In this document: in pieces, positions 20,276 through 49,409 of the stretch
Position numbering within the stretch: the first letter of the stretch is position 1
Layout of the letters: every line of letters starts with the position of its first letter
Assembly (NCBI GenBank): GCA_000403415.2
Contig: KE159699.1
Span: 1 to 52,937, forward strand
From: Firmicutes bacterium M10-2
Lineage (GTDB): Bacteria; Bacillota_I; Bacilli_A; Erysipelotrichales; Erysipelotrichaceae
Length of the DNA: 52,937 bases
Direction of reading: 5' to 3'
Position numbers and translations under genes: made by a program
The notes under the pieces: model-generated
What the model saw: the letters and a program-made list of their open reading frames with translations, nothing else
Told to the model about the DNA's origin: nothing
The model's database searches: none

Positions 20276-20303
20276 AAGCATCATCACAGATCTGATGATG
20301 CGA
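20276..20303 (-). terminator. CHAP-lysin terminator hairpin, distal copy with U-tract
   Basis: 28-bp direct repeat containing the stem GCATCATCA / TGATGATGC. On the minus strand it is followed by TTTTTT (20272-20277), so this is the copy that keeps the original U-tract. The identical 28 bp recur at 20495-20522 on the other side of the 191-bp element. Confidence 0.88.
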
Positions 20304-20494
20304 CAGAGTGTTGACAAACTACCTATTTTGAAAAAATTAAATTTCAATAAAATAAAAGTGGGTAAAAAGGTCTAAAAAAAGAGTAATATTAGGTACTTAA
20401 ATACCTCAAATTGCTCTTTTTTTATTCATTTGTGGGAGAAAAATAAAAAGCTGTGACAAAGCCGATTTGAAAAATCGACTTTGTCAACAGCCTG
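20304..20494. mobile_element. 191-bp non-autonomous IS1182-type element (MITE), copy 1
   Basis: Non-coding, A+T-rich element ending in CAGAGTGTTGACAAA and TTTGTCAACAGCCTG. These match the IS1182 terminal repeat of this window at 14 and 14 of 15 positions. Internal hairpin 20374-20423 (AAAAAAAGAG / CTCTTTTTTT with an inner AGGTA / TACCT) is a bidirectional terminator. The right-end hairpin 20450-20491 uses the terminal repeat as one arm and is followed, on the minus strand, by TTTTTATTTTT. Lysin transcripts enter from this right end. The three copies in the window are identical by base-by-base reading. Confidence 0.92.
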
Positions 20495-20522
20495 AAGCAT
20501 CATCACAGATCTGATGATGCGA
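20495..20522 (-). terminator. CHAP-lysin terminator hairpin, gene-proximal copy
   Basis: Second copy of the 28-bp hairpin repeat, 4 bp beyond the lysin stop codon. It lost its U-tract to the insertion, but the element's right-end hairpin with its own T-rich tract follows immediately in the direction of transcription. Confidence 0.85.
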
Positions 20523-20526
20523 GTGG

Positions 20527-21204
20527 TTAGATGGCATAACCCCACATTGTGCCATCTTGAGCGCGGACTGCGACTGAACGTCTTGCTCCGCTGTACGAGA
20601 TGTACGAAATCCAGAGGTATCCGTCACGTTCGTAAACTTTATCGTAATTTACGGTTTCACCGGAATTGTATTGCTGTCCTGTCAAAGATCCTGCCAATCC
20701 GACTTCGCCGTTGCGGATGTTTACATTATCGACCGTGAATTTGAATGTTCCTGAATTTGGAATCGGATAATTTCCTTCGGTAGAGGTTCCTGAGCCAAAG
20801 CTTTTCGGACGGAAGGCGGTTGCATAGGTTGCGGAGTATGGTAAGGAAACTAAGTTAAAGGCTCCGTTTGCACCACCTTGGTTCTGTCCAAGGAACATTC
20901 CGTTCGATCCGTCAATGTCATGATCGAAGATCGCAACATGGCTGGATGGCGTAACTCCGGATTCCATAAATACGGCTACGTCACCAGGCTGCATGACAGA
21001 TACTTCATTGAAGCTGTTAAGGATTCCGTTGCTGTGACGGTTTACCCATAAGTCTTTTACATAACCTGTAGTTGTACAATTAATGACAGGATATCCGAGT
21101 TTTTGACAATATACGGCAAATCCGTCCCAGCACTGCGGGCCATAGGCTCCATCCACATCATAGGCTTTTCCTAATACTTCGTTTTTAAATTGTTGATAGT
21201 TCAT
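20527..21204 (-). CDS. CHAP-domain endolysin with SH3-type wall-binding domain
   Basis: 225 residues. The N-terminal CHAP domain (about 1-130) has the catalytic Cys in GAYGPQCWDGFAVYCQK and the His in SSHVAIFDHD, as in phage amidase/endopeptidase lysins. The C-terminal part (about 155-225) is an SH3_5-like wall-binding domain with the WISYISYSGARRSVAVRAQD-type end. There is no signal peptide, as expected for a phage endolysin that needs a holin; none is encoded beside it. RBS GAGGGAGA. It lies 84 bp after a small sigma-like regulator gene on the same strand, an arrangement mirrored at 25.2-26.9 kb. Confidence 0.88.
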   Translation of the reverse strand: MNYQQFKNEVLGKAYDVDGAYGPQCWDGFAVYCQKLGYPVINCTTTGYVKDLWVNRHSNGILNSFNEVSVMQPGDVAVFMESGVTPSSHVAIFDHDIDGSNGMFLGQNQGGANGAFNLVSLPYSATYATAFRPKSFGSGTSTEGNYPIPNSGTFKFTVDNVNIRNGEVGLAGSLTGQQYNSGETVNYDKVYERDGYLWISYISYSGARRSVAVRAQDGTMWGYAI

Positions 21205-21288
21205 TTTTTTCTCCCTCTCGCTTTTTCAGCGTTACTTTTGAGTAGATCATTACCGGTTTTTTCTCTACACTTAAAGTATATGGGAGGG

Positions 21289-21618
21289 CTAGTGATAAAT
21301 TGTGCTTTTCTCGTATTTGTATATTCTCGATAATAAATTGTAATATTTATGGCAGATCGTGCTGTGACTGGCATAGTTGAGCTGAATAGCTGTAAAATCA
21401 AGCGATTTATGATCAAAACATCGATATTGAATAAGTTCGGCTTCCGGCTGATTCATGATGTCCAGCCAAGACTCTACTTTTTCGATAATATGTTGATGAT
21501 AGTAATATTCGGTTTTCAAATGCGGACAGATATTGGAATACTTAAAACGATTCATTACGATAAGAGATCGAGGATAACTTTTAAGCATTGATTCAATTTC
21601 AATAAATTCAGATTTCAT
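21289..21618 (-). CDS. Small phage-type sigma-region-4-like regulator (paralogue 1)
   Basis: 109 residues, no confident named family; it looks like the ArpU/RinA/DUF1492 class of phage late-gene regulators. A helical N-terminal part is followed by a helix-turn-helix stretch, RCFDHKSLDFTAIQLNY, that aligns with RCFHHKTFDHIAATLGY of the 26.6-kb paralogue; both then run into a basic Tyr-rich helix. The -35/-10 boxes at 21642-21670 lie just upstream. Its position before the CHAP lysin suggests it controls lysis-gene expression (inference). Confidence 0.6.
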   Translation of the reverse strand: MKSEFIEIESMLKSYPRSLIVMNRFKYSNICPHLKTEYYYHQHIIEKVESWLDIMNQPEAELIQYRCFDHKSLDFTAIQLNYASHSTICHKYYNLLSRIYKYEKSTIYH

Positions 21619-21641
21619 TTTATTTTCATCTCGCAGAAGAC

Positions 21642-21670
21642 ACTATAAAGAATCGTGTAACTGTATTCAA
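21642..21670 (-). promoter_or_regulatory. Promoter of the lysin-associated regulator
   Basis: On the minus strand TTGAAT, 17 bp, TATAGT, placed 24 bp before the regulator ATG. It falls just after the LytTR gene's stop codon, so the regulator-lysin pair can be transcribed independently of the LytTR gene. Confidence 0.6.
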
Positions 21671-21712
21671 TGGTTTTGGAACAAGTGGTACGAATACGGA
21701 ATATCTTGCGAT

Positions 21713-22414
21713 TCATGCTTGATGGGAATAGTTTTTCCAATCTTCGAGAAAGGGATGCTTGAATTTTCTGGAAAGAGGAAAACGGATATTATTGATCAAA
21801 TAGACTTCGTTATTTTCCACTTTTATAACTGCATTTAGGTTCACGTATAGCGATTTGAAACATTGGGAAAAACAAGTACTTTTTAATTTATGGATCCATA
21901 CGTGAAGTGGATAGGGAGTTTTCAGATTTTTTCCGGAACGTAAATATAAATATGTGGTCTTATATTGAAATTCGAAATATAAAATATCTTTTAAATAGAT
22001 TCTTTGTTTGGAAACGGATGGGTCGTAAAAAGAAAGCTCATCTCGAAAATAACTGAGAATGATCGGTTTTAAAAATTTTTCGAATGAATCATATGAAACA
22101 TGGTCAAGCATGTAATAAGTTGCTTGTGTAAAATATCCGTTGAATATTTGCTTGCTGCTTATGGAGTTTAACACGATCAGACAGTTACGGTTGATTCGTT
22201 TCAGTTCGCTTCCAAGAGAAAGTGCCTCTTTTTCATGATCAATATCAAGAAATAAAAGTTGAACTTGAAAACGATATTTCATAAGCTCGATCGGAGTAGA
22301 AATTTTCTGGATTGTATAAGGAATGTAAAGAGAATCAAAAAGTTGACTGACATATTGTTCGGTATGTTCGGCACGGCTTTTATCTAAGTCATAGATTAAA
22401 ATACAAGTTTTCAT
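21713..22414 (-). CDS. LytTR-family response-regulator-like protein
   Basis: 233 residues. The C-terminal half (about 130-233) is a LytTR DNA-binding domain: RIYLKDILYFEFQYKTTYLY, the SLYVNLNAVIKVENNEVYL strand pair and a terminal PLSRKF. The N-terminal half resembles a diverged receiver, with a candidate phospho-Asp in LLFLDID, but the usual C-terminal Lys is not clear. No partner histidine kinase is next to it. LytTR regulators commonly control bacteriocin, competence or autolysis genes. The start is the ATG at 22414 after AGAGGTG; a TTG seven codons upstream overlaps that RBS. Divergent from blaI. Confidence 0.75.
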   Translation of the reverse strand: MKTCILIYDLDKSRAEHTEQYVSQLFDSLYIPYTIQKISTPIELMKYRFQVQLLFLDIDHEKEALSLGSELKRINRNCLIVLNSISSKQIFNGYFTQATYYMLDHVSYDSFEKFLKPIILSYFRDELSFYDPSVSKQRIYLKDILYFEFQYKTTYLYLRSGKNLKTPYPLHVWIHKLKSTCFSQCFKSLYVNLNAVIKVENNEVYLINNIRFPLSRKFKHPFLEDWKNYSHQA

Positions 22415-22430
22415 AATAAACACCTCTTTT

Positions 22431-22456
22431 ATCAATTATAAAGTTTTATAATTGAT
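22431..22456. promoter_or_regulatory. Perfect 26-bp inverted repeat between LytTR and blaI genes
   Basis: Arms ATCAATTATAAA and TTTATAATTGAT around a 2-nt centre, in the 128-bp divergent intergenic region, 17 bp before the LytTR gene start. Its position suits an operator for the LytTR or BlaI product; it has no T-tract, so it is not an obvious terminator. Which protein binds is unknown. Confidence 0.5.
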
Positions 22457-22487
22457 ATTACGTTTTAAATTATATGTTTTTTTATAA

Positions 22488-22516
22488 TTTACATCAAATC
22501 TTTTGTTTGCTATAAT
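22488..22516 (+). promoter_or_regulatory. blaI-operon promoter
   Basis: TTTACA, a 17-bp spacer and TATAAT, 27 bp before the blaI start. TTTACAT resembles part of the TACA/TGTA core bound by BlaI/MecI repressors, so autoregulation here is plausible. Confidence 0.65.
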
Positions 22517-22542
22517 GAGCTTGCTTAAGCCGAGGTGTGAAA

Positions 22543-22923
22543 ATGAAAAAGTTTTTTACGAAAAAAGAGTATGAAATCATGAATGTTTTATGGGACCAAG
22601 AAAGACCGTTATCGTCCGCAGATATTTTGGAACGCACGGAAGGTTTACCGCAAAGTACGATACAAGTTGGATTAAGAAAACTATTGAAAGAAAAATTGAT
22701 TGAAGTAAAAAATGTCACGATTCACACAAAAGTAGCTACTCGAGAATTTTCTCCAACTCTTTCTCGGGAAGAGTATATCGGAAACTTATTAGGTAAGGGG
22801 AACAGTTTTCGATTCGCCGCGCAATTTATTCAAAAAAATGAGGATAAAGAAGAATTGGACCGCTTGGAAAAAATGATTCAGGAGAAGAAAGAGGAAAGCT
22901 TGGATGGTTGCACCGAAGTTTAA
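22543..22923 (+). CDS. BlaI/MecI/CopY-family transcriptional repressor
   Basis: 126 residues with the winged-helix domain at the N-terminus (KKEYEIMNVLWDQERPLSSADI) and the C-terminal dimerisation helices. In this family the repressor is cleaved when a membrane M56 protease senses a signal, and the protease gene follows directly with a 20-bp overlap. The LTREFSP-like segment (here ATREFSPTLSREEY) is shared with the orphan paralogue at 33099. The ATG at 22543 is preferred over a GTG two codons earlier because GAGGTG is the RBS. Beta-lactam sensing is not implied. Confidence 0.88.
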   Translation: MKKFFTKKEYEIMNVLWDQERPLSSADILERTEGLPQSTIQVGLRKLLKEKLIEVKNVTIHTKVATREFSPTLSREEYIGNLLGKGNSFRFAAQFIQKNEDKEELDRLEKMIQEKKEESLDGCTEV

Positions 22924-24040
22924 TTTCTTTTTTAGAATTTCACAATCTTCGATTTTAAATTCTATTCTTGTAGTATCGCTTTTGGCTTTATTTTTACAGA
23001 GGATACTAAGTAAAGAAAAAAACTATAAATATTTTCGGACAGATTTTATAGGCATTGTAGTTTTACTAATTGTTACTCGTTTAATTTTGCCTATCGAGTG
23101 CTTTTATACGTGCACTATTTCATCAAAATGGTATGGGGATTTTAATTTCTATGTGCTTAAAGCTCCGCTTTTCAATACCGGTCTTGAAATCAAAGACGTA
23201 TTTGTGATCATTTGGATCTTAGGAAGTATCGTTCAGTTGATTCGTTACGGGTTTGAAATTTATCGAATTCGGTACATGGAAAAATACATACTGGTTCCGG
23301 AAAGCGAACAACTGAAAAATGATTCGATCATTCAAGATTATAAGATCGTACGATCTGATCGTGTCAAGCAGCTGGAAGTAAGAAGCTTTACCAAAACGAT
23401 CTATTTACCAAAGGTAGACTTTTCAGACGAAGAATTGAAATATATTCTTCTTCATGAAAAACAGCACCTGAAAAATCATGACTTAGCTTTGCTTCAAGTG
23501 ATCAATTTGCTCCAGATCATTTATTGGTGGTTTCCGTTGATCTATGTATTCCGAAAACAATTTCAATTTCTATTAGAGATCCGAGTGGATCATCAAGTAT
23601 CCGACATTTTAGAACAGAATGAATATTTAGATTATGCGCAAGCGATGGTGAGCGTGAATAAAAAGATCCAGATGGAAAAGCCGAAGTATTCTCAAAATCT
23701 CGGATTTGCGGATTTCGGCAAATCGGAACTTTCGCACCGTGTCGCGTTTTATTTGGAAGGGGAAAACAAGAAAAGGACTTCAAAATTTCTTCTTGCACTG
23801 CTTTTGATTGTCGGGATCGGATCAAGCGCATTTATTGTAGAACCTAATACAGGAGAGCAGGTTTTTGGTGAACGATATAACGATTTTGTCACTTCGTCAA
23901 ACAGCTATTTGCTCGAGAAAAAAGATGGAACGTATGAATGGTATTCAAAAGGTGAATTATTTCAAACGCTTGATCAAGAGAGTGATATTCAAGCAGTAAA
24001 AGATGGAATGTATGACGGTTTTGAAATCAGAAAGGAATAA
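22904..24040 (+). CDS. BlaR1/MecR1-family M56 metallopeptidase
   Basis: 378-residue membrane protease. N-terminal transmembrane helices (about 15-35, 45-65, 95-115) are followed by a cytoplasmic zinc-protease domain with HEKQH in YILLHEKQHLKNHD (about residue 187) and another hydrophobic helix near 295-315. The outer C-terminal part is short (about 65 residues) and lacks the penicillin-binding sensor domain of BlaR1/MecR1, so the inducing signal is unlikely to be a beta-lactam acylating it. The ATG overlaps the end of blaI. The stop overlaps the next ATG (TAATG), so the third gene is coupled to it. Confidence 0.85.
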   Translation: MVAPKFNFFFRISQSSILNSILVVSLLALFLQRILSKEKNYKYFRTDFIGIVVLLIVTRLILPIECFYTCTISSKWYGDFNFYVLKAPLFNTGLEIKDVFVIIWILGSIVQLIRYGFEIYRIRYMEKYILVPESEQLKNDSIIQDYKIVRSDRVKQLEVRSFTKTIYLPKVDFSDEELKYILLHEKQHLKNHDLALLQVINLLQIIYWWFPLIYVFRKQFQFLLEIRVDHQVSDILEQNEYLDYAQAMVSVNKKIQMEKPKYSQNLGFADFGKSELSHRVAFYLEGENKKRTSKFLLALLLIVGIGSSAFIVEPNTGEQVFGERYNDFVTSSNSYLLEKKDGTYEWYSKGELFQTLDQESDIQAVKDGMYDGFEIRKE

Positions 24041-24249
24041 TGCTTGTGAAATTACTAATTGCTTTAATGTTAGTAAATCCGTTTGGGATGATGATTAATA
24101 ATAGCAATCCTACAAATATAGGCTCTCAAATTGCACGAGCAGATATTAAAGAATGGATTATTGAAGAAAGGCCAGATGGTCATGTCTACAAGCGTCTTTA
24201 TAATCATACAACAGGAAAATGGGAAACCGACTGGATATTTGTTCGTTAA
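24040..24249 (+). CDS. Small secreted peptide of unknown function
   Basis: 69 residues, unrecognised. A hydrophobic N-terminus (VKLLIALMLVNPFGMMI, about 3-19) looks like a signal or anchor segment, followed by a hydrophilic, aromatic-rich tail ending GKWETDWIFVR. Its ATG overlaps the stop of the M56 protease gene and AAAGGA lies upstream, so it is very likely translated as the third gene of the blaI-blaR1 operon. It might be the ligand, substrate or effector of that system (inference). Confidence 0.6.
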   Translation: MLVKLLIALMLVNPFGMMINNSNPTNIGSQIARADIKEWIIEERPDGHVYKRLYNHTTGKWETDWIFVR

Positions 24250-24270
24250 TTAAAATGGATTGATCTACTG

Positions 24271-24306
24271 GACTCGATACGTGCAGGTATCGGGTCTTTT
24301 TCTTTT
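24271..24306 (+). terminator. Terminator of the blaI-blaR1-peptide operon
   Basis: GACTCGATAC pairs with GTATCGGGTC (one G.U pair) across a 6-nt loop and is followed by TTTTTCTTTTTT. The remaining stretch to 24599 holds no gene or RNA I can recognise. Confidence 0.85.
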
Positions 24307-24599
24307 TTGCCGGTTTCCTATTGGTGTATAGAACTTAATCGAGGTTCTAATTTGTTTGCCTGATTTCACAAATTGATCGGTTTGCGAGATGAAATCCTCC
24401 TTACTATGTTGGATCTTTTGTGAAACACATGGCATGGAGCAGTATAAACAATTTTGCATGATCGTAAAAGTCAATTCGGATATCTTGCTTGTTTACAGTA
24501 TATGTCGAAAGATAATTTATGTCAATCGATACAAAAGTACCAAAATAATCTTTTATTCGATACCTAATTTTTCTTGATTTGGGGTTATTCTTCGGGCGT

Positions 24600-25241
24600 A
24601 TGGAAAATGTGATCATGCGATTGTGTGAAGAAACAAATCTGGATCAAATGGAGCTGTCGCAGTATTTACAAGTGGATTTGAACGAATTGATGAAATGGGA
24701 AAGAAATCCGAAAAGGATCCCTATTACGGTCATGCAAAAGATCGGAAATCTTTATCCGGGACCGCTGGATCGTCTTGTATTCGGAAAAGATCCGATCGAC
24801 ATTTCTTCATTGAGTCAAGAAAACCGAATTAAAATACTTTCCTTTTATTTTAAGGATGAAGAAAGTAGAAGAACTCCTCGTGTTCGAAAACCGAAGGTTC
24901 ATAGTTTTGAGCCGGATCCGGGATATTTGGAAACCTCTTATTCTTATCGTGCAAAAGATATGCGAGCCAATGAGTTGAGGATCAGTCAAAATGAATTCGC
25001 TTATTTGACAGGATATTCCAGATCCATGATCAAATTTTGGGAAGATGGAGAAAAAGGGAAAACACTTGATTCAATTTTAAGTTTTTGCAAGATCCTTCGT
25101 GGAAGTTTGGATTATTTCATCATGGACAATCGTCCGCGCTCTTTGTTTACCGGAGATCTGGATGAAGAATTTATTGCGAATATTCGATATAATGTAAAAA
25201 GATTAGAAAAGAAGCATCAGGATCTATACAAGTATTCCTGA
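24600..25241 (+). CDS. Double helix-turn-helix (XRE-like) DNA-binding protein
   Basis: 213 residues with two HTH regions: one near the N-terminus (NLDQMELSQYLQVDLNELMKWER, read in two parts) and one in the C-terminal half (LRISQNEFAYLTGYSRSMIKFWEDG). The linker is rich in Arg, Lys and Pro. It is not a standard XRE repressor with a known sensor domain, and the target is unknown; the neighbouring lysis cassette is a candidate. The start is uncertain: ATG at 24600 has no clear RBS, and the ATG at 24618 is an alternative. The stop codon lies in the terminator arm. Confidence 0.65.
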   Translation: MENVIMRLCEETNLDQMELSQYLQVDLNELMKWERNPKRIPITVMQKIGNLYPGPLDRLVFGKDPIDISSLSQENRIKILSFYFKDEESRRTPRVRKPKVHSFEPDPGYLETSYSYRAKDMRANELRISQNEFAYLTGYSRSMIKFWEDGEKGKTLDSILSFCKILRGSLDYFIMDNRPRSLFTGDLDEEFIANIRYNVKRLEKKHQDLYKYS

Positions 25242-25249
25242 TGCTTTTT
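25212..25249. terminator. Bidirectional terminator between convergent HTH and lysin genes
   Basis: AAGCATCAGGA and TCCTGATGCTT form an 11-bp stem with T-rich tails on both strands. It overlaps the end of the HTH gene and lies 3 bp beyond the lysin stop. Confidence 0.85.
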
Positions 25250-25251
25250 GG

Positions 25252-26220
25252 TTACAAGCTGAATCCGCTACCCCAAAGAATGCTGTCTTGACCGGGCTTT
25301 CCGATCGCGACATATCGGCGATTTCCGCTATATGCGATATACGAAATCCAAATGAGGTTGTCATTGATCACATAACTGTCATATTGAATATTTGTTCCGC
25401 TTTCATAATAAGCCAAAACAAGACTGTTTTTTGTCGGTTCTTCATAAACCGGGAGTTTTGTGCTCGGAACAAATGTTCCGGTTTTTGGGATTCTTTCTGC
25501 TTCTTGGGCTTCTTGAACAAGCGTTTTATCGAATCCGGAACCCCATAATGTGTTTGTGGCATCGTTAGGACCAATCGCAACGTATCGGCGATTTCCGCTA
25601 TACGCAATATAGGAAACCCAGATAAAACTGTCATTGACTACATATCCGTCATATCGAATGCTCGATCCGCTTGGATAATAATCGAGTGCCGGACTTGCCT
25701 GAGTTGGCTGGGCACAAACCGGAAGCTGGATATTTGGTAAAAAGGTTCCGGATAACGGCACAAGGGTGTAGGATTCAGGATCAATGACCGATTGATTAGA
25801 ATAACGATAAATTGTTTGTACGGGATTGCCTTTGGCTTGCCAAACCGTTTCATATATATCTTCTGAAATACCGTTGTTGGAGTAATTGCAATGAATAATA
25901 TGCGTATGGTCAGTAAAAATTCCTGTATGTCCGCTGGCACCGGACGATCCTCCTCGAACTCCCCAAATAAAGATATCTCCTCGATCGGCCTGATCGGGCA
26001 CAATCTGTGACCATCCATTTTGTTCCAAATGGTTAAATAACGTATCGGTATTTCCCATCGTTCCTGTTGGAAGGAATCCTCCTTCTTGTAACGCGAAATA
26101 TACAGCGCTGGAACAATCGTAAGAATTTGGCCCAAGCCTTTGTTCCATACTGTAAAATATCTTACCTTTCCTGGTTTCCATCCAGTTTATCATATTTTGA
26201 ATTGCGATTGTTTTTTCCAT
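25252..26220 (-). CDS. Phage-type peptidoglycan hydrolase (Amidase_5) with two SH3-type repeats
   Basis: 322 residues. The N-terminal domain (about 1-150) matches the Amidase_5/Pal group of phage lysins: GPNSYDCSSAVYFALQEGG carries the catalytic Cys and SGHTGIFTDHTHIIHCNY the His. Two SH3_5-like repeats follow, both with NRRYVAIG and LWGSGF ends and near-identical YIAYSGNRRYVA cores, which suggests a recent internal duplication. Similar wall-binding repeats end the CHAP lysin at 20.5 kb. No signal peptide. RBS GGAGAAAG. The gene overlaps the holin gene upstream by 59 bp, the classic lysis-cassette order. Confidence 0.9.
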   Translation of the reverse strand: MEKTIAIQNMINWMETRKGKIFYSMEQRLGPNSYDCSSAVYFALQEGGFLPTGTMGNTDTLFNHLEQNGWSQIVPDQADRGDIFIWGVRGGSSGASGHTGIFTDHTHIIHCNYSNNGISEDIYETVWQAKGNPVQTIYRYSNQSVIDPESYTLVPLSGTFLPNIQLPVCAQPTQASPALDYYPSGSSIRYDGYVVNDSFIWVSYIAYSGNRRYVAIGPNDATNTLWGSGFDKTLVQEAQEAERIPKTGTFVPSTKLPVYEEPTKNSLVLAYYESGTNIQYDSYVINDNLIWISYIAYSGNRRYVAIGKPGQDSILWGSGFSL

Positions 26221-26937: not shown

Positions 26938-27054
26938 GATCAAACCAACTTTCTAATAAAGTACTTTATGCCTGAATTTTAGAACCTCTTTAATGAACAA
27001 TTGTGCTAAAAATGTGCATCTTATCCAAAAAACAAGCACGATATTCCTATATTG

Positions 27055-27083
27055 TTGAAAACGCTTTCTTTTTTGCATACAAT
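27055..27083 (+). promoter_or_regulatory. Lipoprotein promoter overlapped by a consensus cre box
   Basis: TTGAAA, a 17-bp spacer and TACAAT give a near-consensus promoter. The 15 bases at 27055-27069 (TTGAAAACGCTTTCT) fit the CcpA target consensus WTGNAANCGNWNNCW at every fixed position. The box covers the -35 and the spacer, so binding of CcpA with P-Ser-HPr would repress the lipoprotein genes when glucose is abundant. Confidence 0.75.
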
Positions 27084-27108
27084 AAAACCGTATGCAGGGG
27101 GTAAAAAC

Positions 27109-33098: not shown

Positions 33099-33470
33099 AT
33101 GAAAGTTTCCCACTTAACCAAGCGTGAAAATGAGATCATGGAGATCTTCTGGCGATCAGAAAAGCCGTTGTCTTCAAATGATATCTGCTTGGAAGCCCCA
33201 CACATAAGTAAGAACACAGTACAGGCCGTGATCAGAAAGCTGCTCTCGATGAACTTCATCGAGATCGCAGGGCTAGGCTACAACAAAAACGCCTTGACCC
33301 GCGAGTTCAGCCCATGCATCTCTCAGGCAGAGTACTTTGACAACTTTCTTGTGCGGGATACTTCCTATGAATTGGCTGCGAATTTTATTCGCCAAGCTGA
33401 AGATATCGCAACACTCGAACAAATCGAGGCTTTGATTGCTGAACGAAAAGAAGCGCTACAAGCTGCTTAG
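33099..33470 (+). CDS. Orphan BlaI/MecI/CopY-family repressor
   Basis: 123 residues, paralogous to the protein at 22543: the N-terminal winged helix (TKRENEIMEIFWRSEKPLSSNDI) and the ALTREFSPCISQAEYF block align closely. There is no M56 protease gene beside it, so it may answer to the protease at 22.9 kb or regulate on its own. RBS AGAGAGGT. Its terminator was the target of a 191-bp element. Confidence 0.85.
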   Translation: MKVSHLTKRENEIMEIFWRSEKPLSSNDICLEAPHISKNTVQAVIRKLLSMNFIEIAGLGYNKNALTREFSPCISQAEYFDNFLVRDTSYELAANFIRQAEDIATLEQIEALIAERKEALQAA

Positions 33471-33485
33471 TGAAGCAGAACATGA

Positions 33486-33509
33486 AAAACTCCGTAAAAG
33501 CGGAGTTTT
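33486..33509 (+). terminator. Terminator hairpin of the orphan blaI gene, left copy
   Basis: Exact 24-bp hairpin: 9-bp stem AAAACTCCG / CGGAGTTTT with loop TAAAAG. Repeated identically at 33701-33724, so it is the target duplication; the U-tract is now on the other copy. Confidence 0.88.
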
Positions 33510-33700
33510 CAGAGTGTTGACAAACTACCTATTTTGAAAAAATTAAATTTCAATAAAATAAAAGTGGGTAAAAAGGTCTAAAAAAAGAGTAATATTAGGT
33601 ACTTAAATACCTCAAATTGCTCTTTTTTTATTCATTTGTGGGAGAAAAATAAAAAGCTGTGACAAAGCCGATTTGAAAAATCGACTTTGTCAACAGCCTG
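33510..33700. mobile_element. 191-bp non-autonomous IS1182-type element, copy 2
   Basis: Identical in sequence to the copy at 20304-20494 and in the same orientation on the plus strand. Here blaI transcription enters from the left end and would first meet the duplicated host hairpin and then the internal bidirectional hairpin (about 33580-33629). Target duplication 24 bp. Confidence 0.92.
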
Positions 33701-33728
33701 AAAACTCCGTAAAAGCGGAGTTTTTTTT
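33701..33728 (+). terminator. Terminator hairpin of the orphan blaI gene, right copy with U-tract
   Basis: Same 24-bp hairpin, followed by four more T's and so retaining a complete U-tract (eight T's in a row). Confidence 0.88.
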
Positions 33729-43076: not shown

Positions 43077-43078
43077 AT

Positions 43079-43534
43079 ATGAGAAAAGAAAAATGCGCTC
43101 TTCAAGAGGATCGAATCGAAGAAATCTTGGAGCAAGGTGAATATGGCATTCTCGCTCTGTGCGCAGGAAAAAAACCGTACGCCGTTCCGATGAACTACGT
43201 TTATAAAAATAAATCTCTTTACTTTCACGGTGCCAAAGTCGGACTTCGGTATGACTATATTCAATTCAATGATCAAGCAAGTTTTTGTGTTATCGACCAC
43301 GCCATTGATCGCCCCGATCTTTTTAGTACCGATTACGCAAGCGTCATTGTAAACGGAACTGTCGAACTTGTTAAAGAGGAGGAAGAAATCAAAGAAGGTT
43401 TGTTCGCCCTGATCGAACATTTAGCTCCTCAGCGCATCGAAGACGGAAAAGCGTACATTGATCGGGCGTGGGAAAATACAGCTGTATTCAAACTGAACAT
43501 TCAGGAGTGGAGCGGAAAAGAAAGAAAAAGGTGA
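43079..43534 (+). CDS. Flavin-binding pyridoxamine 5'-phosphate oxidase-like protein (NimA-like)
   Basis: 151 residues. The opening EEILEQGEYGILALC, then AVPMNYVYKNKSLYFHGAKVG (read in parts) and a terminal NTAVFKLNIQEWSGK are characteristic of NimA-like flavin-binding proteins. Some relatives reduce nitroimidazoles, but that cannot be claimed from sequence alone. The ATG at 43079 lies after GGAGGATTGAAT; a TTG two codons upstream is less likely. It overlaps nothing but is tightly linked to the phosphatase gene. Confidence 0.82.
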   Translation: MRKEKCALQEDRIEEILEQGEYGILALCAGKKPYAVPMNYVYKNKSLYFHGAKVGLRYDYIQFNDQASFCVIDHAIDRPDLFSTDYASVIVNGTVELVKEEEEIKEGLFALIEHLAPQRIEDGKAYIDRAWENTAVFKLNIQEWSGKERKR

Positions 43535-43628
43535 AGATAGATTCTTCATCTTTTTAAAATTATACAATCAAATGAAAGCAACAAAAAAGAAAAGTTGGAC
43601 TATAATGAATCCAAGGAGGAACATACAA

Positions 43629-44714
43629 ATGCTCAAAATAGGAATGCTAACAAGCGGGGGCGATTGTCAGGCACTGAACGCCACAATGCGCGCCATTTAT
43701 AAGTCCGTTCGTCATGCAGCCAATGAATCTGTTGAATTTTACGGATTCGAGGACGGATACAAAGGATTGATGTACGGAAAGTATCGTGTTCTGAAACAAG
43801 AAGACTTTAACGGAATCTTGACGATTGGAGGAACAATTTTAGGAACGAGTCGTGTTCCGTTCAAAAAAATTCGTAAGCCCGATGAAAACGGAATGGATAA
43901 AGTTAAAGCGATGAAAAGTACCTATCATAAATTAGGCCTGGATTGCCTCGTCGTTTTAGGAGGTAACGGATCGATCAAAACGGCCAATCTTCTTTCCGAA
44001 GAAGGATTGAATGTCGTTGCGATGCCAAAAACGATCGACAATGATTTATGGGGAACGGACATGACGTTTGGCTTCCAATCTGCAGTCGATATCGCAACAA
44101 GAGCCATTGACGAAATTCATACAACCGCAAGCAGCCACAAACGTGTGTTTATTGTCGAAATTATGGGTCATAAAACAGGATGGCTTCCGCTCAATGCCGG
44201 AATCGCCGGAGGAGCCGATATTATTTTGCTTCCGGAAATACCTTACGATCTTGATAAAATCATTGATGTGATCGAAAATAAAAAGACCACCAACATTAAT
44301 GGCGGACGTTTCATGATCCTAGCTGTTGCCGAAGGAGCCATTTCGAAGGAAGATGCTAAACTGTCGAAAAAAGAATATAAAGAGAAATTGAAAAATTCTC
44401 CGTATCCTTCGGTTTCTTATGAACTTGCAGCTCAAATTCAGGAAAGAACCGGAAGGGAAGTCCGCGTCACTGTTCCCGGACATACACAGCGCGGAGGAGC
44501 CCCGGACGCATATGATCGGGTCTTTGCCAGCCGTGTAGGCGCAGCCGGAGGAAAAATGATCGTTGAAGGCCAATATGGATATATGGTCGCCTATCGCAAT
44601 CGCGAAATGATTAAAGTTCCGCTCAAGGAAGCGGCCGGAAAACTGAAACTCGTAGATCCGAACGCAAACATTATCAAAGAAGCAAAATTGATCGGAATCA
44701 GCTTTGGTGACTAA
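43629..44714 (+). CDS. 6-phosphofructokinase family (PfkA superfamily) with unusual nucleotide-site residues
   Basis: 361 residues. LTSGGDCQALNATMRAIY at the start, GTSRVPF and the catalytic PKTIDND are diagnostic of PfkA-type enzymes. The loop normally GGDGS is GGNGS, and the position that is Gly in ATP-dependent E. coli PfkA (GTIDND) is Lys, as in PPi-type enzymes. By the usual residue rule, Gly at 104 favours ATP while Lys at 124 belongs to the PPi or mixed clade, so phosphoryl donor is uncertain. ATG chosen 9 bp after AGGAGG; in-frame ATGs upstream would include that RBS. Overlaps the next gene by 11 bp. Confidence 0.88.
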   Translation: MLKIGMLTSGGDCQALNATMRAIYKSVRHAANESVEFYGFEDGYKGLMYGKYRVLKQEDFNGILTIGGTILGTSRVPFKKIRKPDENGMDKVKAMKSTYHKLGLDCLVVLGGNGSIKTANLLSEEGLNVVAMPKTIDNDLWGTDMTFGFQSAVDIATRAIDEIHTTASSHKRVFIVEIMGHKTGWLPLNAGIAGGADIILLPEIPYDLDKIIDVIENKKTTNINGGRFMILAVAEGAISKEDAKLSKKEYKEKLKNSPYPSVSYELAAQIQERTGREVRVTVPGHTQRGGAPDAYDRVFASRVGAAGGKMIVEGQYGYMVAYRNREMIKVPLKEAAGKLKLVDPNANIIKEAKLIGISFGD

Positions 44715-45747
44715 TTTAAGAAAAAGTCTGATTTCCTTGCTTGCTGCATTGGTGAGTTTATCATTTTTATGGCCTCAGCCGGTCAAGGCATATGAACATC
44801 GCAGCGTACTGCTCGATTGTGCAAGGAAATATTACAGTGTCGACTGGATCAAACAGCTAATCGATCTCATGGAAGAAAACAAAGCCAATGAGCTCCTCCT
44901 TCATTTTTCCGAAAATGAAGGAATGCGGATTGAATCAAAACAATATCCTTGGCTGACACAAGGCGAAAAAGGCGTATATACGCAAGAAGACATTATCGAA
45001 CTGGGCACATATGCCAAAGAAAAAGGAATCGAACTCATTCCTTCATTTGATTCTCCCGGACATTTGCGCTATGTGCTTGATCGCTATGAACAACATTATG
45101 GCTATTCGATCGCTACCGAGCTTTCCGACCAATGTATAGATCTTGCCAATCCAAAAGCCATCGCCTTTATTCGATCTTTGCAAAAAGAATACGGGGAATT
45201 GTTTTTGCAAACCGGAAGCAGTCAGTTTGATATGGGCGGAGATGAGGTATTTTCAAATTGGCTGTGGAGCAAAGCCACAAGCTGGAAAACGTACATTTCC
45301 AAACGATACGGACGCTCTTTAAAAGCCTATGATGCATTTACTGATTATATGAATGAAAGCAATGCTTTTTTAAAAGAACTCGGATTTCGCAGCTGTCGTA
45401 TGTACAACGATCAGCTGAAAAAGGGAAACCTTTCTCTTGATCCAGATATTGTAATTGAATATTGGACGATTAAAGGAGAAGTTCCCAAAGAAAACAAGGT
45501 ACTCAATTATTTGAATTTTTATTTGTATTATATTTTGGATCCGAACCTGTCTTATCTTGGAGGAAATGCAGATGCCATAGAAAGAGAGTGGACTCCGCAG
45601 TTTTTCTTGAATAAAAAAATGGAAAATCCGATTATCGGATCTTCCTATTGTATTTGGGCAGATATCCCGGATTCTCAAACCGAACAGCAAGTATTTGAAG
45701 GGGTCGCCCCTTTGATCAGAGCTTGGGGACACAAGTGTACTACTTGA
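44704..45747 (+). CDS. Secreted glycoside hydrolase family 20-like protein
   Basis: 347 residues. N-terminal signal peptide (KSLISLLAALVSLSFLWPQPVKA) and then a single TIM-barrel domain. IELIPSFDSPGHLRYVL and the Asp-Glu pair in FDMGGDEVFSNW match the catalytic features of beta-N-acetylhexosaminidases and lacto-N-biosidases. The usual N-terminal GH20b domain is absent. No ATG start: TTG at 44704 or GTG at 44707, both inside the PFK gene's end, so translation is probably coupled. Likely trims host or cell-wall GlcNAc/GalNAc-containing glycans outside the cell. Confidence 0.8.
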   Translation: MVTNLRKSLISLLAALVSLSFLWPQPVKAYEHRSVLLDCARKYYSVDWIKQLIDLMEENKANELLLHFSENEGMRIESKQYPWLTQGEKGVYTQEDIIELGTYAKEKGIELIPSFDSPGHLRYVLDRYEQHYGYSIATELSDQCIDLANPKAIAFIRSLQKEYGELFLQTGSSQFDMGGDEVFSNWLWSKATSWKTYISKRYGRSLKAYDAFTDYMNESNAFLKELGFRSCRMYNDQLKKGNLSLDPDIVIEYWTIKGEVPKENKVLNYLNFYLYYILDPNLSYLGGNADAIEREWTPQFFLNKKMENPIIGSSYCIWADIPDSQTEQQVFEGVAPLIRAWGHKCTT

Positions 45748-45759
45748 TCTCCAGGCTTT

Positions 45760-46188
45760 TTATTGTTCGTTTTTAGTGTTTTCGTCAATTTGCCTGACCA
45801 CCTTCATGAAAACATTGATTTCTTCTCTAGAAACCCCTTTGAATATTTTTTTGAAAAATTCGGTTTGAAGCTGTTTCCCTTCTGAAAAAATAATCATTGC
45901 CTGATCGGTTAATTCGATCGTTTTTTCGCGGCGATCTTTCGGATTGACCTGTAAAGTGACATAGCCTTCCTTTTCCATCTTTTCCAAGCTCATGGATACG
46001 AGATTCGCCTTAATTCCGCGCAACTCCACGATATCTTTGGCATGCTTACATTGGGGATTATTTCCCAGAAACATCAAGATAGCAATCATAGAAGGGGAAA
46101 TTTTATATTTCACAGCAAGAGGTTTCATGGCGCGTTTGTAGCTCTGGATAATTTTTTGGATGAAACCAACACTCCGTATGGCATTCAT
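45760..46188 (-). CDS. MarR-family transcriptional regulator
   Basis: 142 residues with a MarR winged helix: MIAILMFLGNNPQCKHAKDI, then KANLVSMSLEKMEKEGYVTL and the wing NPKDRREKTIELT. RBS AAGGAGG. Transcribed alone, convergent with the GH20 gene, without a terminator I can see between them. Target genes unknown. Confidence 0.85.
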   Translation of the reverse strand: MNAIRSVGFIQKIIQSYKRAMKPLAVKYKISPSMIAILMFLGNNPQCKHAKDIVELRGIKANLVSMSLEKMEKEGYVTLQVNPKDRREKTIELTDQAMIIFSEGKQLQTEFFKKIFKGVSREEINVFMKVVRQIDENTKNEQ

Positions 46189-46242
46189 AAAAAGACCTCC
46201 TTTGTAATCATACTATCCCATGGTTCTTAGGATCATGCAATG

Positions 46243-46270
46243 AAAAAAAGACCTCTTTCGAGGCCTTTTG
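46243..46270 (-). terminator. ftsH terminator
   Basis: On the minus strand AAAGGCCTC-GAAA-GAGGTCTTT (one G.U pair) followed by TTTT, directly after the ftsH stop codon. Confidence 0.85.
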
Positions 46271-48151
46271 TTACGCATTCGTTGAAGTGTTCGGCAATTC
46301 GACCGGCTTATTTAATATGTACATGAATTGCTCCCCTGTAATGGTTTCCTGTTCATACAAGTATTTTGCCAGTTCATGAAGTTTCATCTTGTTTTCGTCA
46401 AGAATCTGATACGCTTCATCGTATGCTTTTTTGATTAAAGCAATTACTTCTTCATCGATTTTTGCTGCTGTTTCATTTGAGCATGCCAGCGTTGTATCAC
46501 CGCCAAGATACGCATTGTTAACTGTTTCCAATGCTGTCATGCCAAAGTGGTCGGACATACCAAGACGGGTAATCATGGCACGAGCCAATTTGGTAGCTTG
46601 TTCGATATCGTTGCTTGCTCCGCTCGTGATCGAATTAAAGATCAGATCTTCGGCTGCACGCCCACCGCAATAGGTCATAATCCTTTGGTATGCTTCTTCT
46701 TTAGAAAGAAGATTCGTTTCTTCTTCCTCCACTTGCATCGTGTATCCCAGAGCGCCTTTGGTTCTTGGAATAATGGTGATCTTGTGCACAGGAGCTGAAT
46801 TTTTTGTTTTAGCAGCAACCAAAGCATGACCAATCTCATGATAGGAAACGATCATCCGTTCACGAGGGGAAATCACAGCACCTTTTTTCTGTTCACCCGC
46901 AATGACTGTTTCGATGGCTTCTTCAAGATCGCGCTGAGTCACTTGTTTGCGCCCATCACGTACCGCAAGAAGAGCACCCTCATTGATAATGTTGGCAAGA
47001 TCGGCACCACTTGATCCGGCTGCCGCACGAGCCACCGCATTGTAGTCAATTTCAGGAGAAGCTTTGATATGAGCTGCATGAAGTTTCAAGATCGCTTCAC
47101 GCCCTTGAAGATCCGGAAGCTCCACAGGAATGCGACGGTCAAATCGTCCCGGACGAGTCAAAGCAGCATCCAATGTATCAGGACGGTTTGTCGCTGCCAA
47201 GAGAACGACCCCTTTGGATCCGTCGAATCCATCCATTTCAGCAAGAAGCTGGTTCAAAGTTTGCTCCCGTTCGTCATTTCCGGAAATTCCTCCCGAATCA
47301 CGTTTTTTACCAACGGTATCAATCTCGTCGATAAATACGATACATGGTGCTTTTTCACGCGCCTGTTTAAAGAGATCGCGTACTTTCGCAGCACCGCGGC
47401 CAACGAACATTTCGACAAATTCCGATCCGGAAATCGAGAAGAACGGAACATCCGCTTCTCCGGCAACCGCTTTGGCAAGCAATGTCTTACCGGTTCCGGG
47501 AGGACCTACAAGCAAAGCGCCCTTTGGCATTTTCGCACCGATTTCCTGATATTTTTTCGGATTGTTCAAGAAATCGACAATTTCTTTTAAATTGTTTTTG
47601 GCTTCTTCTTGTCCGGCAACGTCTTTAAATGTTGTTTTTGTTTTTTCGCCAACATAAACTTTCGCATTGCTTTTTCCTAGATTTCCCATTCCGAAGCCAC
47701 CTCCGGAAGTAAAAGACATTTGGTCAGGAAGATCTCCCATCTTTTTTTGCATACGGCGGAAGAACCATGTTCCCAATCCCCATAAAATAAGCAATGGGAG
47801 GAAAAAGGAAATCAGTGAAGTAAGAATCGGGTTCATTTGGCTGGTAGGGACTTGTGTAAATGTAGCGCCTGCATCTTTTAGCCGATTCACTAAATCCAGA
47901 TCGTTCATGACTTGTGTTTCATAACGTTTTCCGTCATCGCCTTTCAAGGTGTAAGTGATCGTATTGTCCTGAACTTGGACCTTATCGACTTTTTTCTCCT
48001 CAATTTGATCAAGGAACGTGGAATACGTTTCGTCCTGAATACTTTGTGAAGAAAGGAAAGGCATTAATACCCAATTCAGAATCAAGATTACGATTAAAAT
48101 AATCAAATAGTAGTTATAAAGCGATTTTTTCGATTTTGGTTTCTTGTTCAT
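46271..48151 (-). CDS. ftsH: ATP-dependent zinc metalloprotease FtsH
   Basis: 626 residues. Two transmembrane helices (about 12-32 and 109-131) bracket an extracytoplasmic domain. The AAA+ module follows, with Walker A GPPGTGKT (216-223), Walker B IVFIDEID and [21 protein letters not shown] (in parts). The M41 protease has HEIGH (438-442; HEAGH in most species, zinc ligands intact) and a downstream Asp. Degrades misfolded membrane proteins and regulators. Start ATG at 48151 after AAGGAG. Its promoter carries a CIRCE-like inverted repeat. Confidence 0.96.
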
Positions 48152-48178
48152 CGATGTCTCCTTCTTAAAGTTAAACTC

Positions 48179-48218
48179 ATTATACATGCTTTTAGCAAAG
48201 TTTCAACAAGAGTGCTAA
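48179..48218 (-). promoter_or_regulatory. ftsH promoter with a CIRCE-like HrcA operator
   Basis: Minus strand: TTGAAA (48201-48206), 16 bp, TATAAT (48179-48184). Plus strand 48192-48218: TTAGCAAAG, 9 bp, GAGTGCTAA. The CIRCE consensus is TTAGCACTC-N9-GAGTGCTAA, so the right half is perfect, the left half fits six of nine, and the spacing is exact. HrcA repression, relieved by heat shock, is the natural reading. Confidence 0.7.
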
Positions 48219-48346
48219 ACGATGTATGATTTCACACAATAAAGAAAAATTTTGTGGGAGATCAAATAAAACATGAATAAGAGTTGAATGCTATCATAGC
48301 ACACTATGTATTGGTTGCATAGAAAAATGTTCTATACTTTCCGGCG

Positions 48347-48375
48347 TTTTCAATTTGAATAATTGTGATTATAAT
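48347..48375 (+). promoter_or_regulatory. Esterase-gene promoter
   Basis: TTTTCA, 17 bp, TATAAT, 43 bp before the ATG. The rest of the 268-bp gap to ftsH is taken up by the CIRCE/promoter region and A+T-rich DNA. Confidence 0.6.
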
Positions 48376-48418
48376 AGAGGCGAAAGTTTCATGGAAAAGA
48401 GTATAGGAGGAGATTGTT

Positions 48419-49162
48419 ATGATTGTTAAGATTCCTTTTCGCATTGATCCCCTCGAGCGGGAAACAATGCTGCACGTGTACTTGCCCGATGATTATGAAG
48501 AAAAAGATGAACGTTATCCGGTCATGTATATGTATGATGGGCACAATTTGTTCGATGACAAGGACGCGACGTATGGAAAATCATGGGGTCTGGCAAAATT
48601 TTTGAATGCGTATAATAAGCCGTTTATTATCGTGGGGATCGAATGTGATCATATCGGAAGAAATCGGTTAGATGAGTATTGTCCGTATCCGGTTTGTTCT
48701 GCATTTTTAGGCAATATTCGCGGCAAAGGCGGGATATTCATGGATTGGGTAGTTAACGTGCTCAAACCGTTTATCGATAAAAATTTCCGAACTTTTCCAC
48801 AACGAGGAGCGACAGGAATCGGAGGAAGCTCAATGGGTGGTTTAATGGCGTATTATTCGGTTGTTCGCTACAACAAAGTGTTTTCCAAAGCAGCGTGTCT
48901 GTCCCCTTCGTTAATGGTTTGCGAAAACCAATTGATGAATGAAACAAAAGAAGATTGGATTCATCCGGATACCCGTGTATATATGAGCATGGGAACGAAA
49001 GAGTTCGGATCGGGAAATCTTCAATTGTTTCCTTATTTGGATCAGTTTGCTCAGGCCATCAAGCCGGCACTATCGAAAATCGAAATCATCGAAGGCGGAG
49101 AACACAACGAAGCTTGTTGGGAAACGCTAAATAAAGAATATTTTGACTATTTATGGATGTGA
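48419..49162 (+). CDS. Putative esterase (alpha/beta hydrolase, esterase D/Fes-like family)
   Basis: 247 residues. YPVMYMYDGHNLFDD and the nucleophile elbow GIGGSSMGGLMAYY (Ser in GSSMG) with a late His in GGEHNEACW fit the PF00756 esterase family. No signal peptide, so it is cytoplasmic. The natural ester is unknown. RBS GGAGGAGA. Its terminator carries the third 191-bp element. Confidence 0.85.
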   Translation: MIVKIPFRIDPLERETMLHVYLPDDYEEKDERYPVMYMYDGHNLFDDKDATYGKSWGLAKFLNAYNKPFIIVGIECDHIGRNRLDEYCPYPVCSAFLGNIRGKGGIFMDWVVNVLKPFIDKNFRTFPQRGATGIGGSSMGGLMAYYSVVRYNKVFSKAACLSPSLMVCENQLMNETKEDWIHPDTRVYMSMGTKEFGSGNLQLFPYLDQFAQAIKPALSKIEIIEGGEHNEACWETLNKEYFDYLWM

Positions 49163-49163
49163 T

Positions 49164-49187
49164 TGACGATAGAAAGTTCTATCGTCT
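49164..49187 (+). terminator. Esterase terminator hairpin, left copy
   Basis: GACGATAGAA and TTCTATCGTC form a 10-bp stem with a very short loop; with one flanking T on each side this 24-bp unit is repeated at 49379-49402 as the target duplication. Confidence 0.87.
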
Positions 49188-49378
49188 CAGAGTGTTGACA
49201 AACTACCTATTTTGAAAAAATTAAATTTCAATAAAATAAAAGTGGGTAAAAAGGTCTAAAAAAAGAGTAATATTAGGTACTTAAATACCTCAAATTGCTC
49301 TTTTTTTATTCATTTGTGGGAGAAAAATAAAAAGCTGTGACAAAGCCGATTTGAAAAATCGACTTTGTCAACAGCCTG
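49188..49378. mobile_element. 191-bp non-autonomous IS1182-type element, copy 3
   Basis: Identical to copies 1 and 2 and in the same plus-strand orientation. Target duplication 24 bp (stem plus one T on each side). Esterase transcripts enter from the left end. Confidence 0.92.
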
Positions 49379-49409
49379 TGACGATAGAAAGTTCTATCGT
49401 CTTTTTTTG
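49379..49409 (+). terminator. Esterase terminator hairpin, right copy with U-tract
   Basis: Second copy of the 24-bp hairpin unit, followed by TTTTTTT. Confidence 0.87.

What the first reader, a model, noticed from the sequence alone, without database searches (positions are those of the whole stretch)
20276..49402. Three identical 191-bp elements, all in intrinsic terminators, share the ends of the IS1182 element
Elements at 20304-20494, 33510-33700 and 49188-49378 read identically and end in CAGAGTGTTGACAAA and TTTGTCAACAGCCTG, near matches to the IS1182 terminal repeat. Each is flanked by a 28-, 24- or 24-bp duplication of the local terminator hairpin. They look like non-autonomous derivatives mobilised in trans by the transposase at 3392, with recent movement since no base differs. 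Terminators offer a plentiful, gene-safe niche.
Basis: partly seen in the sequence, partly recalled or inferred. Interest (0 to 1): 0.92.

Follow-up and report, generated by a model that had tools for sequence, protein, structure and literature searches.

The report
Tiny jumping elements inside transcription terminators
A 191-letter piece of mobile DNA sits in about sixty places in one bacterial genome, nearly always inside a DNA hairpin, usually one that ends a gene's transcript, and flanked by two exact copies of that hairpin, which suggests a transposase that aims at DNA shape rather than sequence.

Summary
Confirmed and extended genome-wide. The genome has 62 left ends of the element; 59 also have a right end, 56 of them identical over 191 bp. 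Of the 59, 54 are flanked by exact 15-32 bp repeats; 53 of these fold as one full-length hairpin. Pairing is centred exactly on the repeat: 44 of 54 sites pass at zero shift, at most 2 at any other shift up to 8 bp. Fifty of 54 have a T/A tract; 44 of 59 lie within 36 bp of a predicted gene 3' end. It is a MITE with IS1182-type ends; the window's IS1182 element duplicates hairpins the same way. Hairpin or terminator targeting by IS1182 relatives is published (IS1272, TnSha1, ISCbo5), but IS1272 removes the hairpin; whole-hairpin duplication appears only as a hypothetical pathway in what I read. Here it is the rule, also in a single-contig relative and in named plasmids. A sister clade with other ends duplicates the hairpin loop (8-9 bp), that model's third pathway, in all 8 plasmid records fetched but only 5 of 11 loci here. 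New variant of a known kind. Cruciform recognition and action in trans are inferred, not shown.

The parts
20304..20494 (+). 191-bp non-autonomous element, copy 1
   Evidence: one of 56 identical copies in the genome
20276..20303 (.). left copy of the 28-bp target duplication (hairpin beside the 3' end of the minus-strand gene 20527-21204)
20495..20522 (.). right copy of the same 28-bp duplication
20373..20424 (+). central hairpin of the element with an A tract before and a T tract after (terminator-like on both strands)
   Evidence: folds; present in the 8 aligned sequences, weak in G173
20450..20491 (-). right-end hairpin within the terminal region, followed by a T run when read inward (minus strand)
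   Evidence: -22 to -30 kcal/mol in the 7 of 8 aligned sequences with a complete right end (two of the 7 are from this genome)
33510..33700 (+). 191-bp element, copy 2
33486..33509 (.). left copy of the 24-bp hairpin duplication, 3' of the ORF 33099-33470
33701..33724 (.). right copy, retaining the T tract
   Evidence: a single hairpin with T tract and no element at the matching gene end in G141
49188..49378 (+). 191-bp element, copy 3
49164..49187 (.). left copy of the 24-bp hairpin duplication, 3' of the ORF 48419-49162
49379..49402 (.). right copy, retaining the T tract
   Evidence: a single hairpin and no element at the matching gene end in G141
3295..4940 (+). IS1182-family insertion sequence (1646 bp), ends CAGACTGTTGACAAA; presumed source of transposase
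3392..4819 (+). IS1182 transposase gene, 475 aa
   Evidence: NCBIfam NF033551 399 bits against cut-off 270; Pfam DDE_Tnp_1_6, DDE_Tnp_1, DUF772
3270..3294 (.). left copy of the 25-bp hairpin duplication of the IS
4941..4965 (.). right copy of the 25-bp hairpin duplication of the IS

Best explanation
The 191-bp element is a high-copy MITE mobilised in trans by the class-A IS1182 transposase (ends CAG..TGTTGACAAA) that is present in the genome. The transposase picks a target by structure: a hairpin, in practice mostly an intrinsic terminator. It joins the element's two 3' ends to the two strands at the 5' feet of the hairpin, about one nucleotide outside the stem, so gap repair copies the whole hairpin to both sides. 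The repeat length is therefore set by each hairpin and not by a fixed ruler. Shown by sequence: ends, copy number, hairpin-long repeats centred on the dyad, the same behaviour of the IS. Inferred: trans action, the strand-joining steps, and that the recognised form is an extruded cruciform (a four-way junction). The element carries its own terminator-like hairpins, which should keep the site insulated (inferred).
For: 54 of 59 copies with both ends have an exact 15-32 bp repeat; 53 of 54 fold as one hairpin spanning the repeat, against 615 of 5000 random positions under the same lenient test. Pairing about the repeat centre reaches 0.75 at 44 of 54 sites at zero shift, at 0-2 of 54 at shifts of 1-8 bp, and at 0.28% of random positions; the paired fraction is 0.89 at position 2 of the repeat, 0.52 at position 1 and 0.33-0.5 over the four positions just outside. 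Class-A IS copies: three in this genome and six in G007 have hairpin repeats of 19-35 bp. A 70% identical MITE in the single-contig genome G007 has 13 copies: 12 with exact 19-29 bp repeats, the 13th with a 22-bp repeat that has one mismatch, read by eye. Two of three window sites have a matching gene end with a single hairpin and no element in G141. In named plasmids 8 of 14 class-A regions fetched have an exact repeat of 16-30 bp and all 8 are hairpins (Enterococcus, Sutcliffiella, Klebsiella, Aminobacter, Brevibacillus, Providencia).
Against: Three copies (L012, L015, L032) have 9-10 bp repeats, two of them covering one arm of a hairpin (by eye); L033 has a 15-bp repeat covering part of its hairpin; L009 and L082 have no repeat, apparently after rearrangement. 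Seven of the nine MITE-carrying genomes searched showed no intact class-A IS, though most are drafts that may lose repeats. Of 31 class-A IS loci examined in the bacterial family, 17 lack an exact long repeat: 10 have different hairpins at the two ends, one has diverged copies, 6 are cut by contig ends or Ns. Nothing here shows transposition or a cruciform.
Confidence: 0.85

Rival explanations
1. Same element and transposase, but the recognised structure is a hairpin on single-stranded DNA (lagging-strand template or behind RNA polymerase), not a double-stranded cruciform.
For: Sequence data cannot separate the two; elements occur in both orientations relative to the tract (14 T only, 16 A only, 20 both, 4 neither), which neither predicts nor excludes it.
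Against: A repeat spanning the hairpin needs joining on both strands at opposite feet; an enzyme acting on one folded strand would need the second strand later (argument, not tested).
Confidence: 0.25
2. Insertion is random and selection leaves only copies in terminators, where they harm no gene.
For: 54 of 59 sites fall outside predicted ORFs and 44 of 59 are within 36 bp of a predicted gene 3' end.
Against: Selection cannot make the repeat length and centre match each hairpin to the base. Hairpins without a T/A tract and inside predicted ORFs are used too (L008, L022, L090).
Confidence: 0.03
3. The flanking hairpins are part of the mobile unit and travel with it.
For: Ten class-A IS loci have two different complete hairpins at their two ends (partly by eye), also seen in three plasmids (by eye).
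Against: Hairpins differ from site to site, and matching gene ends in G141 have their own single hairpin without the element. Different hairpins at the two ends are expected from recombination between copies, or from assembly.
Confidence: 0.03
4. The MITE is moved by another transposase, e.g. the class-B IS1182 elements (ends GGGGCTGTAACG) also in this genome.
For: Two class-B copies with open transposase genes are present; the MITE shares no body sequence with the class-A IS.
Against: Class-B ends do not match, and none of the 25 class-B loci with both flanks shows a repeat of 4 bp or more; class-A ends match 14 of 15 on each side and give the same hairpin repeat.
Confidence: 0.06
5. Identity and number of copies are inflated by assembly of a repeat from short reads.
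For: Four of 62 left ends run into N stretches, i.e. scaffold gaps.
Against: Each of the 62 copies has its own flank; a distinct 189-bp variant was kept apart at two places; a single-contig relative shows the same pattern with 10 of 13 copies identical.
Confidence: 0.03

Closest known systems
IS1272 / TnSha1 of staphylococci (IS1182 family), PMC5678879 and PMC4923244
   Same: IS1182-family transposase; target chosen as an inverted repeat, confirmed terminators among them; no primary sequence consensus.
   Different: IS1272 and TnSha1 delete the stem-loop wholly or in part and leave no target duplication; here the whole stem-loop is duplicated. Wan et al. draw whole-hairpin duplication (pathway b) and loop duplication (pathway c) as possibilities. 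The terms MITE and terminator do not occur in PMC5678879.
ISCbo5 of Clostridium botulinum group III / C. novyi (IS1182 family), PMC3098183
   Same: All insertion sites except one reported as inverted repeats forming a hairpin at the end of genes, likely transcription stops (passages).
   Different: The passages do not say whether the hairpin is duplicated or how repeat length relates to it; autonomous IS only, 12 to 27 copies per genome.
ISEfa7 group of Enterococcus (IS1182 family)
   Same: Closest named IS to the window transposase among the 30 plasmid records listed (44.7% identity). An unannotated E. raffinosus relative (45.6%) with the same end CAGACTGTAGACAAA has a 21-bp hairpin repeat.
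   Different: Autonomous IS; the MITE as query found nothing in the plasmid collection.
Other small structured repeats of bacteria (BOX, RUP, REP)
   Same: Short, intergenic, high-copy, structured (recalled).
   Different: Not compared here; named from recall and search listings only.

Membership tests
IS1182 family (the 1646-bp element) | transposase over the curated IS1182 cut-off | tested here: met
   NF033551 399 bits, cut-off 270
IS1182 family (the 1646-bp element) | terminal inverted repeats and a DDE transposase gene | tested here: met
   15 of 15 bp repeats; DDE_Tnp_1_6 and DDE_Tnp_1
MITE of the IS1182 family (the 191-bp element) | short, too small for a transposase, terminal inverted repeats like an autonomous element in the same genome | tested here: met
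   191 bp; each end 14 of 15 to the IS end
MITE of the IS1182 family (the 191-bp element) | same kind of target duplication as the autonomous element | tested here: met
   54 of 59 with 15-32 bp repeats, 53 of them hairpins; three IS copies in the same genome with 21-25 bp hairpin repeats
MITE of the IS1182 family (the 191-bp element) | derived from the autonomous element by internal deletion | tested here: not met
   direct comparison: only the ends and short chance-like matches. Not every MITE is such a derivative (recalled)
MITE of the IS1182 family (the 191-bp element) | mobilised in trans by the IS1182 transposase | not testable with these tools
   needs a transposition assay
IS1272-type stem-loop replacement | target hairpin deleted, no target duplication | tested here: not met
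   54 of 59 copies keep two repeat copies, 53 of them hairpins
Whole stem-loop duplication (pathway b of the Wan et al. model) | direct repeat equal to the hairpin, centred on its dyad, length varying from site to site | tested here: met
   shift test
Whole stem-loop duplication (pathway b of the Wan et al. model) | cruciform at the target during strand transfer | not testable with these tools
   biochemistry needed

The most novel reading that the evidence does not exclude
The IS1182 family is a set of structure-guided transposons that share one target, the terminator hairpin, but differ by clade in where on it they join: class A at the 5' feet (whole hairpin duplicated), class C (ends GAG..TGCTGAAAAA) at the loop (8-9 bp loop duplicated), and IS1272 with the hairpin removed. 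Class A has bred high-copy terminator-riding MITEs that bring their own terminators. All three outcomes of a published hypothetical model would then exist in nature, and the joining register would be a heritable property of the transposase.
Probability: 0.55. Interest if true: 0.84.

Novelty: new variant of a known kind. Interest (0 to 1): 0.72.

Why it matters
Most transposases cut the two target strands a fixed distance apart (general knowledge). Here the spacing follows the hairpin at each site, so one genome gives dozens of natural readouts of where the enzyme joins relative to a stem. That makes an old question, whether transposases can read DNA secondary structure in a cell, directly testable. 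The sister class that duplicates the loop offers a comparison of enzymes with the same target and a different register. Terminators are common (38 terminator-like hairpins in 50.6 kb of element-free window, 8 in one shuffle) and lie between genes, so this is a way to reach high copy number with little damage, and it could be of use for inserting DNA safely between genes.

Tried and rejected
A consensus fold of the MITE on 8 rows gave little (1 of 10 pairs with a change on both sides kept); separate folds show the hairpins kept, but I claim no statistical covariation. An outward promoter at the element ends: not seen by eye, not tested. Class-B elements as hairpin replacers: flanks often look like an A tract and a T tract with no hairpin, but this could be part of the terminal repeat; mean z -0.22 over 25 sites, so undecided. 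I did not align class B with IS1272; a plasmid search with a class-B protein gave hits of 31-33% identity among the 12 records listed, none labelled IS1272. An automatic search for IS ends slid into the hairpins and was replaced by motif-anchored ends. Class C in this bacterial family is mixed: 5 of 11 sites have z below -2.8; the four G141 copies with a repeat, and L238 and L240, do not. Orthologous empty site for window site 1: not alignable in G141. Literature: the searches listed no paper on an IS1182 MITE or on measured whole-hairpin duplication that I could recognise from titles, abstract starts and the passages read; most listed papers were not opened. The 2015 review cited in PMC5678879 and PMC4923244 was not sought, and ISfinder was not available; I recall that ISfinder lists long variable repeats for the family.

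The random-position fold test is lenient (615 of 5000 pass), so the shift test carries the argument. The random-position controls used the window with its elements in place.
Full report
WHAT WAS CHECKED. The three 191-bp copies are where the finding says, are identical and have 28-, 24- and 24-bp exact flanking repeats. The window lies in a 2.41-Mb, 22-contig genome, G000. A search allowing three mismatches for the first 35 bases found 62 matches, all with zero mismatches and none in the reversed control. Fifty-nine also have a right end within 420 bp: 56 are the identical 191 bp, two are one 189-bp variant and one contains a 160-N gap. The other three run into gaps or rearrangements: two left ends face each other across Ns inside one hairpin repeat (C1:356089 and C1:358300), and one pairs with another copy around about 2 kb of other DNA (C16:231788-233916).

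THE TARGET. Fifty-four of the 59 copies have an exact direct repeat of 15-32 bp, median 24. Fifty-three of the 54 repeats fold as a single hairpin whose outermost pair lies within 3 nt of both repeat ends; 615 of 5000 random positions pass that lenient test. The strict test is the shift test: with the empty site rebuilt, I asked how well the repeat pairs with itself about its own centre. At zero shift 44 of 54 sites are at least 75% paired; at shifts of 1 to 8 bp either way the number is 0 to 2; at random window positions it is 0.28% of 20,000. Of the 10 sites below the mark, eight score under 0.7 and seven of these eight still fold as hairpins, with a bulge or an off-centre base. Pairing is 0.89 at the second base of the repeat, 0.52 at the first, and 0.33-0.5 over the four positions just outside. 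So the two joining points sit at the two feet of the hairpin, about one base outside the stem. Fifty of 54 have a T or A tract by my criterion, against about 12% of random positions. With a simple ORF finder, 26 sites are between tandem genes, 25 between convergent, 3 between divergent, and 5 inside an ORF; 44 of 59 hairpin centres lie within 36 bp of a predicted gene's 3' end, 11 are farther and 4 have none in the stretch. The four sites without a tract still have hairpins, and three of them are in predicted ORFs, so the hairpin and not the terminator is the target. A scan of 50.6 kb of element-free window finds 179 hairpin centres, 38 with a tract (107 and 8 in one shuffle), which extrapolates to about 1,800 with a tract in the genome; about 3% would be occupied genome-wide, more in this window (4 elements).

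EXCEPTIONS. L012, L015 and L032 have 9-10 bp repeats; in L015 and L032 they cover one arm of a hairpin (by eye). L033 has a 15-bp repeat that starts inside its hairpin. L009 and L082 have no repeat: L009 is one end of the 2-kb composite, L082 abuts a class-B IS1182.

EMPTY SITES. In G141 (same genus; no MITE match, where 3 of its 31 candidates were scored) the gene ends matching window sites 2 and 3 are followed by one hairpin and no element, and no end motif occurs in those fetched stretches; at site 1 the downstream region is not alignable. G140, the other genome of the genus, gave no DNA match.

THE TRANSPOSASE. The 475-aa product of 3392-4819 scores 399 bits on NCBIfam's IS1182 model (cut-off 270) and carries DDE_Tnp_1 domains. 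The genome has five full-length copies of this IS. Three have clean flanks and each has a 21-25 bp hairpin repeat; one runs into Ns and one is in a composite. MITE and IS share their 15-bp ends (14 of 15) and otherwise only short matches of 8-19 bp such as chance gives. The IS left end and the MITE right end both form a hairpin followed by a T run when read inward.

RELATIVES. In 272 genomes of the bacterial family, 14 have some match to the MITE at E 0.001 or better, about nine of them short partial ones (at most 3 candidates per genome were scored, so this counts genomes and not copies). G007, one contig of 2.49 Mb, has 13 copies of a 70% identical 190-191 bp relative, 10 of them identical to each other; 12 have exact 19-29 bp repeats, and the thirteenth has two hairpins differing at one base by eye. 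Pairing of the 12 repeats is 0.88 or more in 11 and 0.56 in one. Copies in two MAGs, 88-89% identical to ours, read the same way by eye (L096, L099, L101-L103). The central hairpin with its T tract is present in the 8 aligned sequences, weakly in G173, and the right-end hairpin in the 7 that are complete there. I took nine genomes as carriers and searched them with the IS1182 model: G000 and G007 have intact class-A elements; G200 and G246 have other or partial ones; G173 and G272-G275 have none. G173 and G273 share an insertion hairpin (by eye) and may be one species. Most are drafts, which may lose repeats, but the result counts against a simple story.

END CLASSES. From the IS1182 model search of 266 genomes (106 with a match) and I examined 92 loci with an ORF of at least 380 codons, a chosen part of all matches. 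Ends anchored by motif: class A (CAG..TGTTGACAAA), 31 loci: 14 have repeats of 17-35 bp, all hairpins (pairing 0.83-1.0); of the other 17, ten have a different complete hairpin at each end, one has two hairpins differing at one base, four stop at a contig end on one side with a hairpin on the other, and two meet Ns (partly by eye). Class C (GAG..TGCTGAAAAA), 15 loci: 11 have 8-9 bp repeats, and in 5 of these 11 the site folds with z below -2.8, the repeat forming the loop. Class B (GGGGCTGTAACG), 27 loci: no repeat in the 25 with both flanks. Class D, one genome, 4 copies: 7-bp repeats, no hairpin. Fifteen loci could not be assigned. In a tree of 72 different transposases the 25 class-A rows fall in one group with four unassigned rows (support 90/94, below the tool's star); the 22 class-B rows and 9 of 10 class-C rows fall in two others, and L218, a class-C label with poor ends, joins class B. 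Labels taken one by one are not single clades in the tool's count.

NAMED REPLICONS. Class A: of 318 plasmid records at E 1e-75 or better I fetched 14 regions, chosen for variety. Eight have an exact repeat of 16-30 bp and all 8 are hairpins, in Firmicutes and Proteobacteria; in L276 the pairing is off by one base (score 0.38, but a 9-bp stem in the fold), and in L287 the repeat is fully self-paired although the wider fold is weak (z -1.06). Three more have two different hairpins by eye, two (one shared site) have a hairpin on one side, one could not be delimited. Class C: of 9 records at E 1e-75 or better (505 at E 1e-5) 8 were fetched; in all 8, at 6 different sites, the 8-9 bp repeat is the loop of a terminator-like hairpin, with at most a few closing pairs, z about -4 to -10. 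They come from Priestia, Peptoclostridium, Metabacillus, Enterococcus and Bacteroides.

PRIOR WORK. PMC5678879 (abstract, sections 22 and 24, first part of the discussion, and passages read): IS1272 replaces inverted repeats with no duplication; its discussion and Figure 13 legend propose whole-hairpin duplication if joining is at the 5' foot and loop duplication if at the loop, without examples in what I read. PMC4923244 (passages): TnSha1 and IS1272 target hairpins, terminators among them, deleting them at least in part. PMC3098183 (passages): ISCbo5 sites are hairpins at gene ends, all but one. PMC12056078 and PMC2828477 (passages): nothing closer. Hairpin targeting by the family is therefore known. 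What I did not find in the searches is a MITE of this kind, the base-level centring of the repeat, or the split of the family into foot-joining and loop-joining groups.

JUDGEMENT. The finding is real and well beyond chance. It is a new variant of a known kind. Shown: structure, number, centring, shared behaviour with class-A IS. Inferred: trans mobilisation, cruciform recognition, insulation by the element's own hairpins.

Noticed in passing
L278-L282, L292-L294 (named plasmids) and L236, L239, L241, L252, L253: A sister IS1182 group (ends like GAGGCTGCTGAAAAA) inserts in the loop of terminator-like hairpins and duplicates the 8-9 bp loop: 8 of 8 plasmid records fetched (6 sites), 5 of 11 loci in this bacterial family.
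   Followed up: yes
L148, L207, L209, L212, L216, L220, L221, L223, L224, L226 and plasmid loci L284, L291, L296: Class-A IS1182 elements with two different complete hairpins at their two ends, as if two insertions had recombined or an adjacent deletion had occurred; seen in plasmid records too, so perhaps not only an assembly effect.
   Followed up: partly
G000:C16:231788-233916 (L106): Two MITE copies bound a roughly 2-kb segment; the outer flanks are copies of one hairpin, as in a composite transposon made of MITEs. A stretch inside looks like a TnpB end (motif recalled, not searched).
   Followed up: partly
L165, L168, L188-L192, L232-L235, L247: Class-B IS1182 elements (ends GGGGCTGTAACG, about 1.8-1.9 kb in these loci) have no target repeat and often lie between an A tract and a T tract; possible hairpin replacement as in IS1272, undecided.
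   Followed up: partly
window 61-2980 and 3062-3175: 23S and 5S rRNA genes (Rfam); the IS1182 element sits in a hairpin a short way downstream of them.
   Followed up: no
L012, L015, L032: Three MITE copies with 9-10 bp repeats, close to the 8-9 bp of class C; may show the enzyme's default spacing when the hairpin is not used.
   Followed up: no
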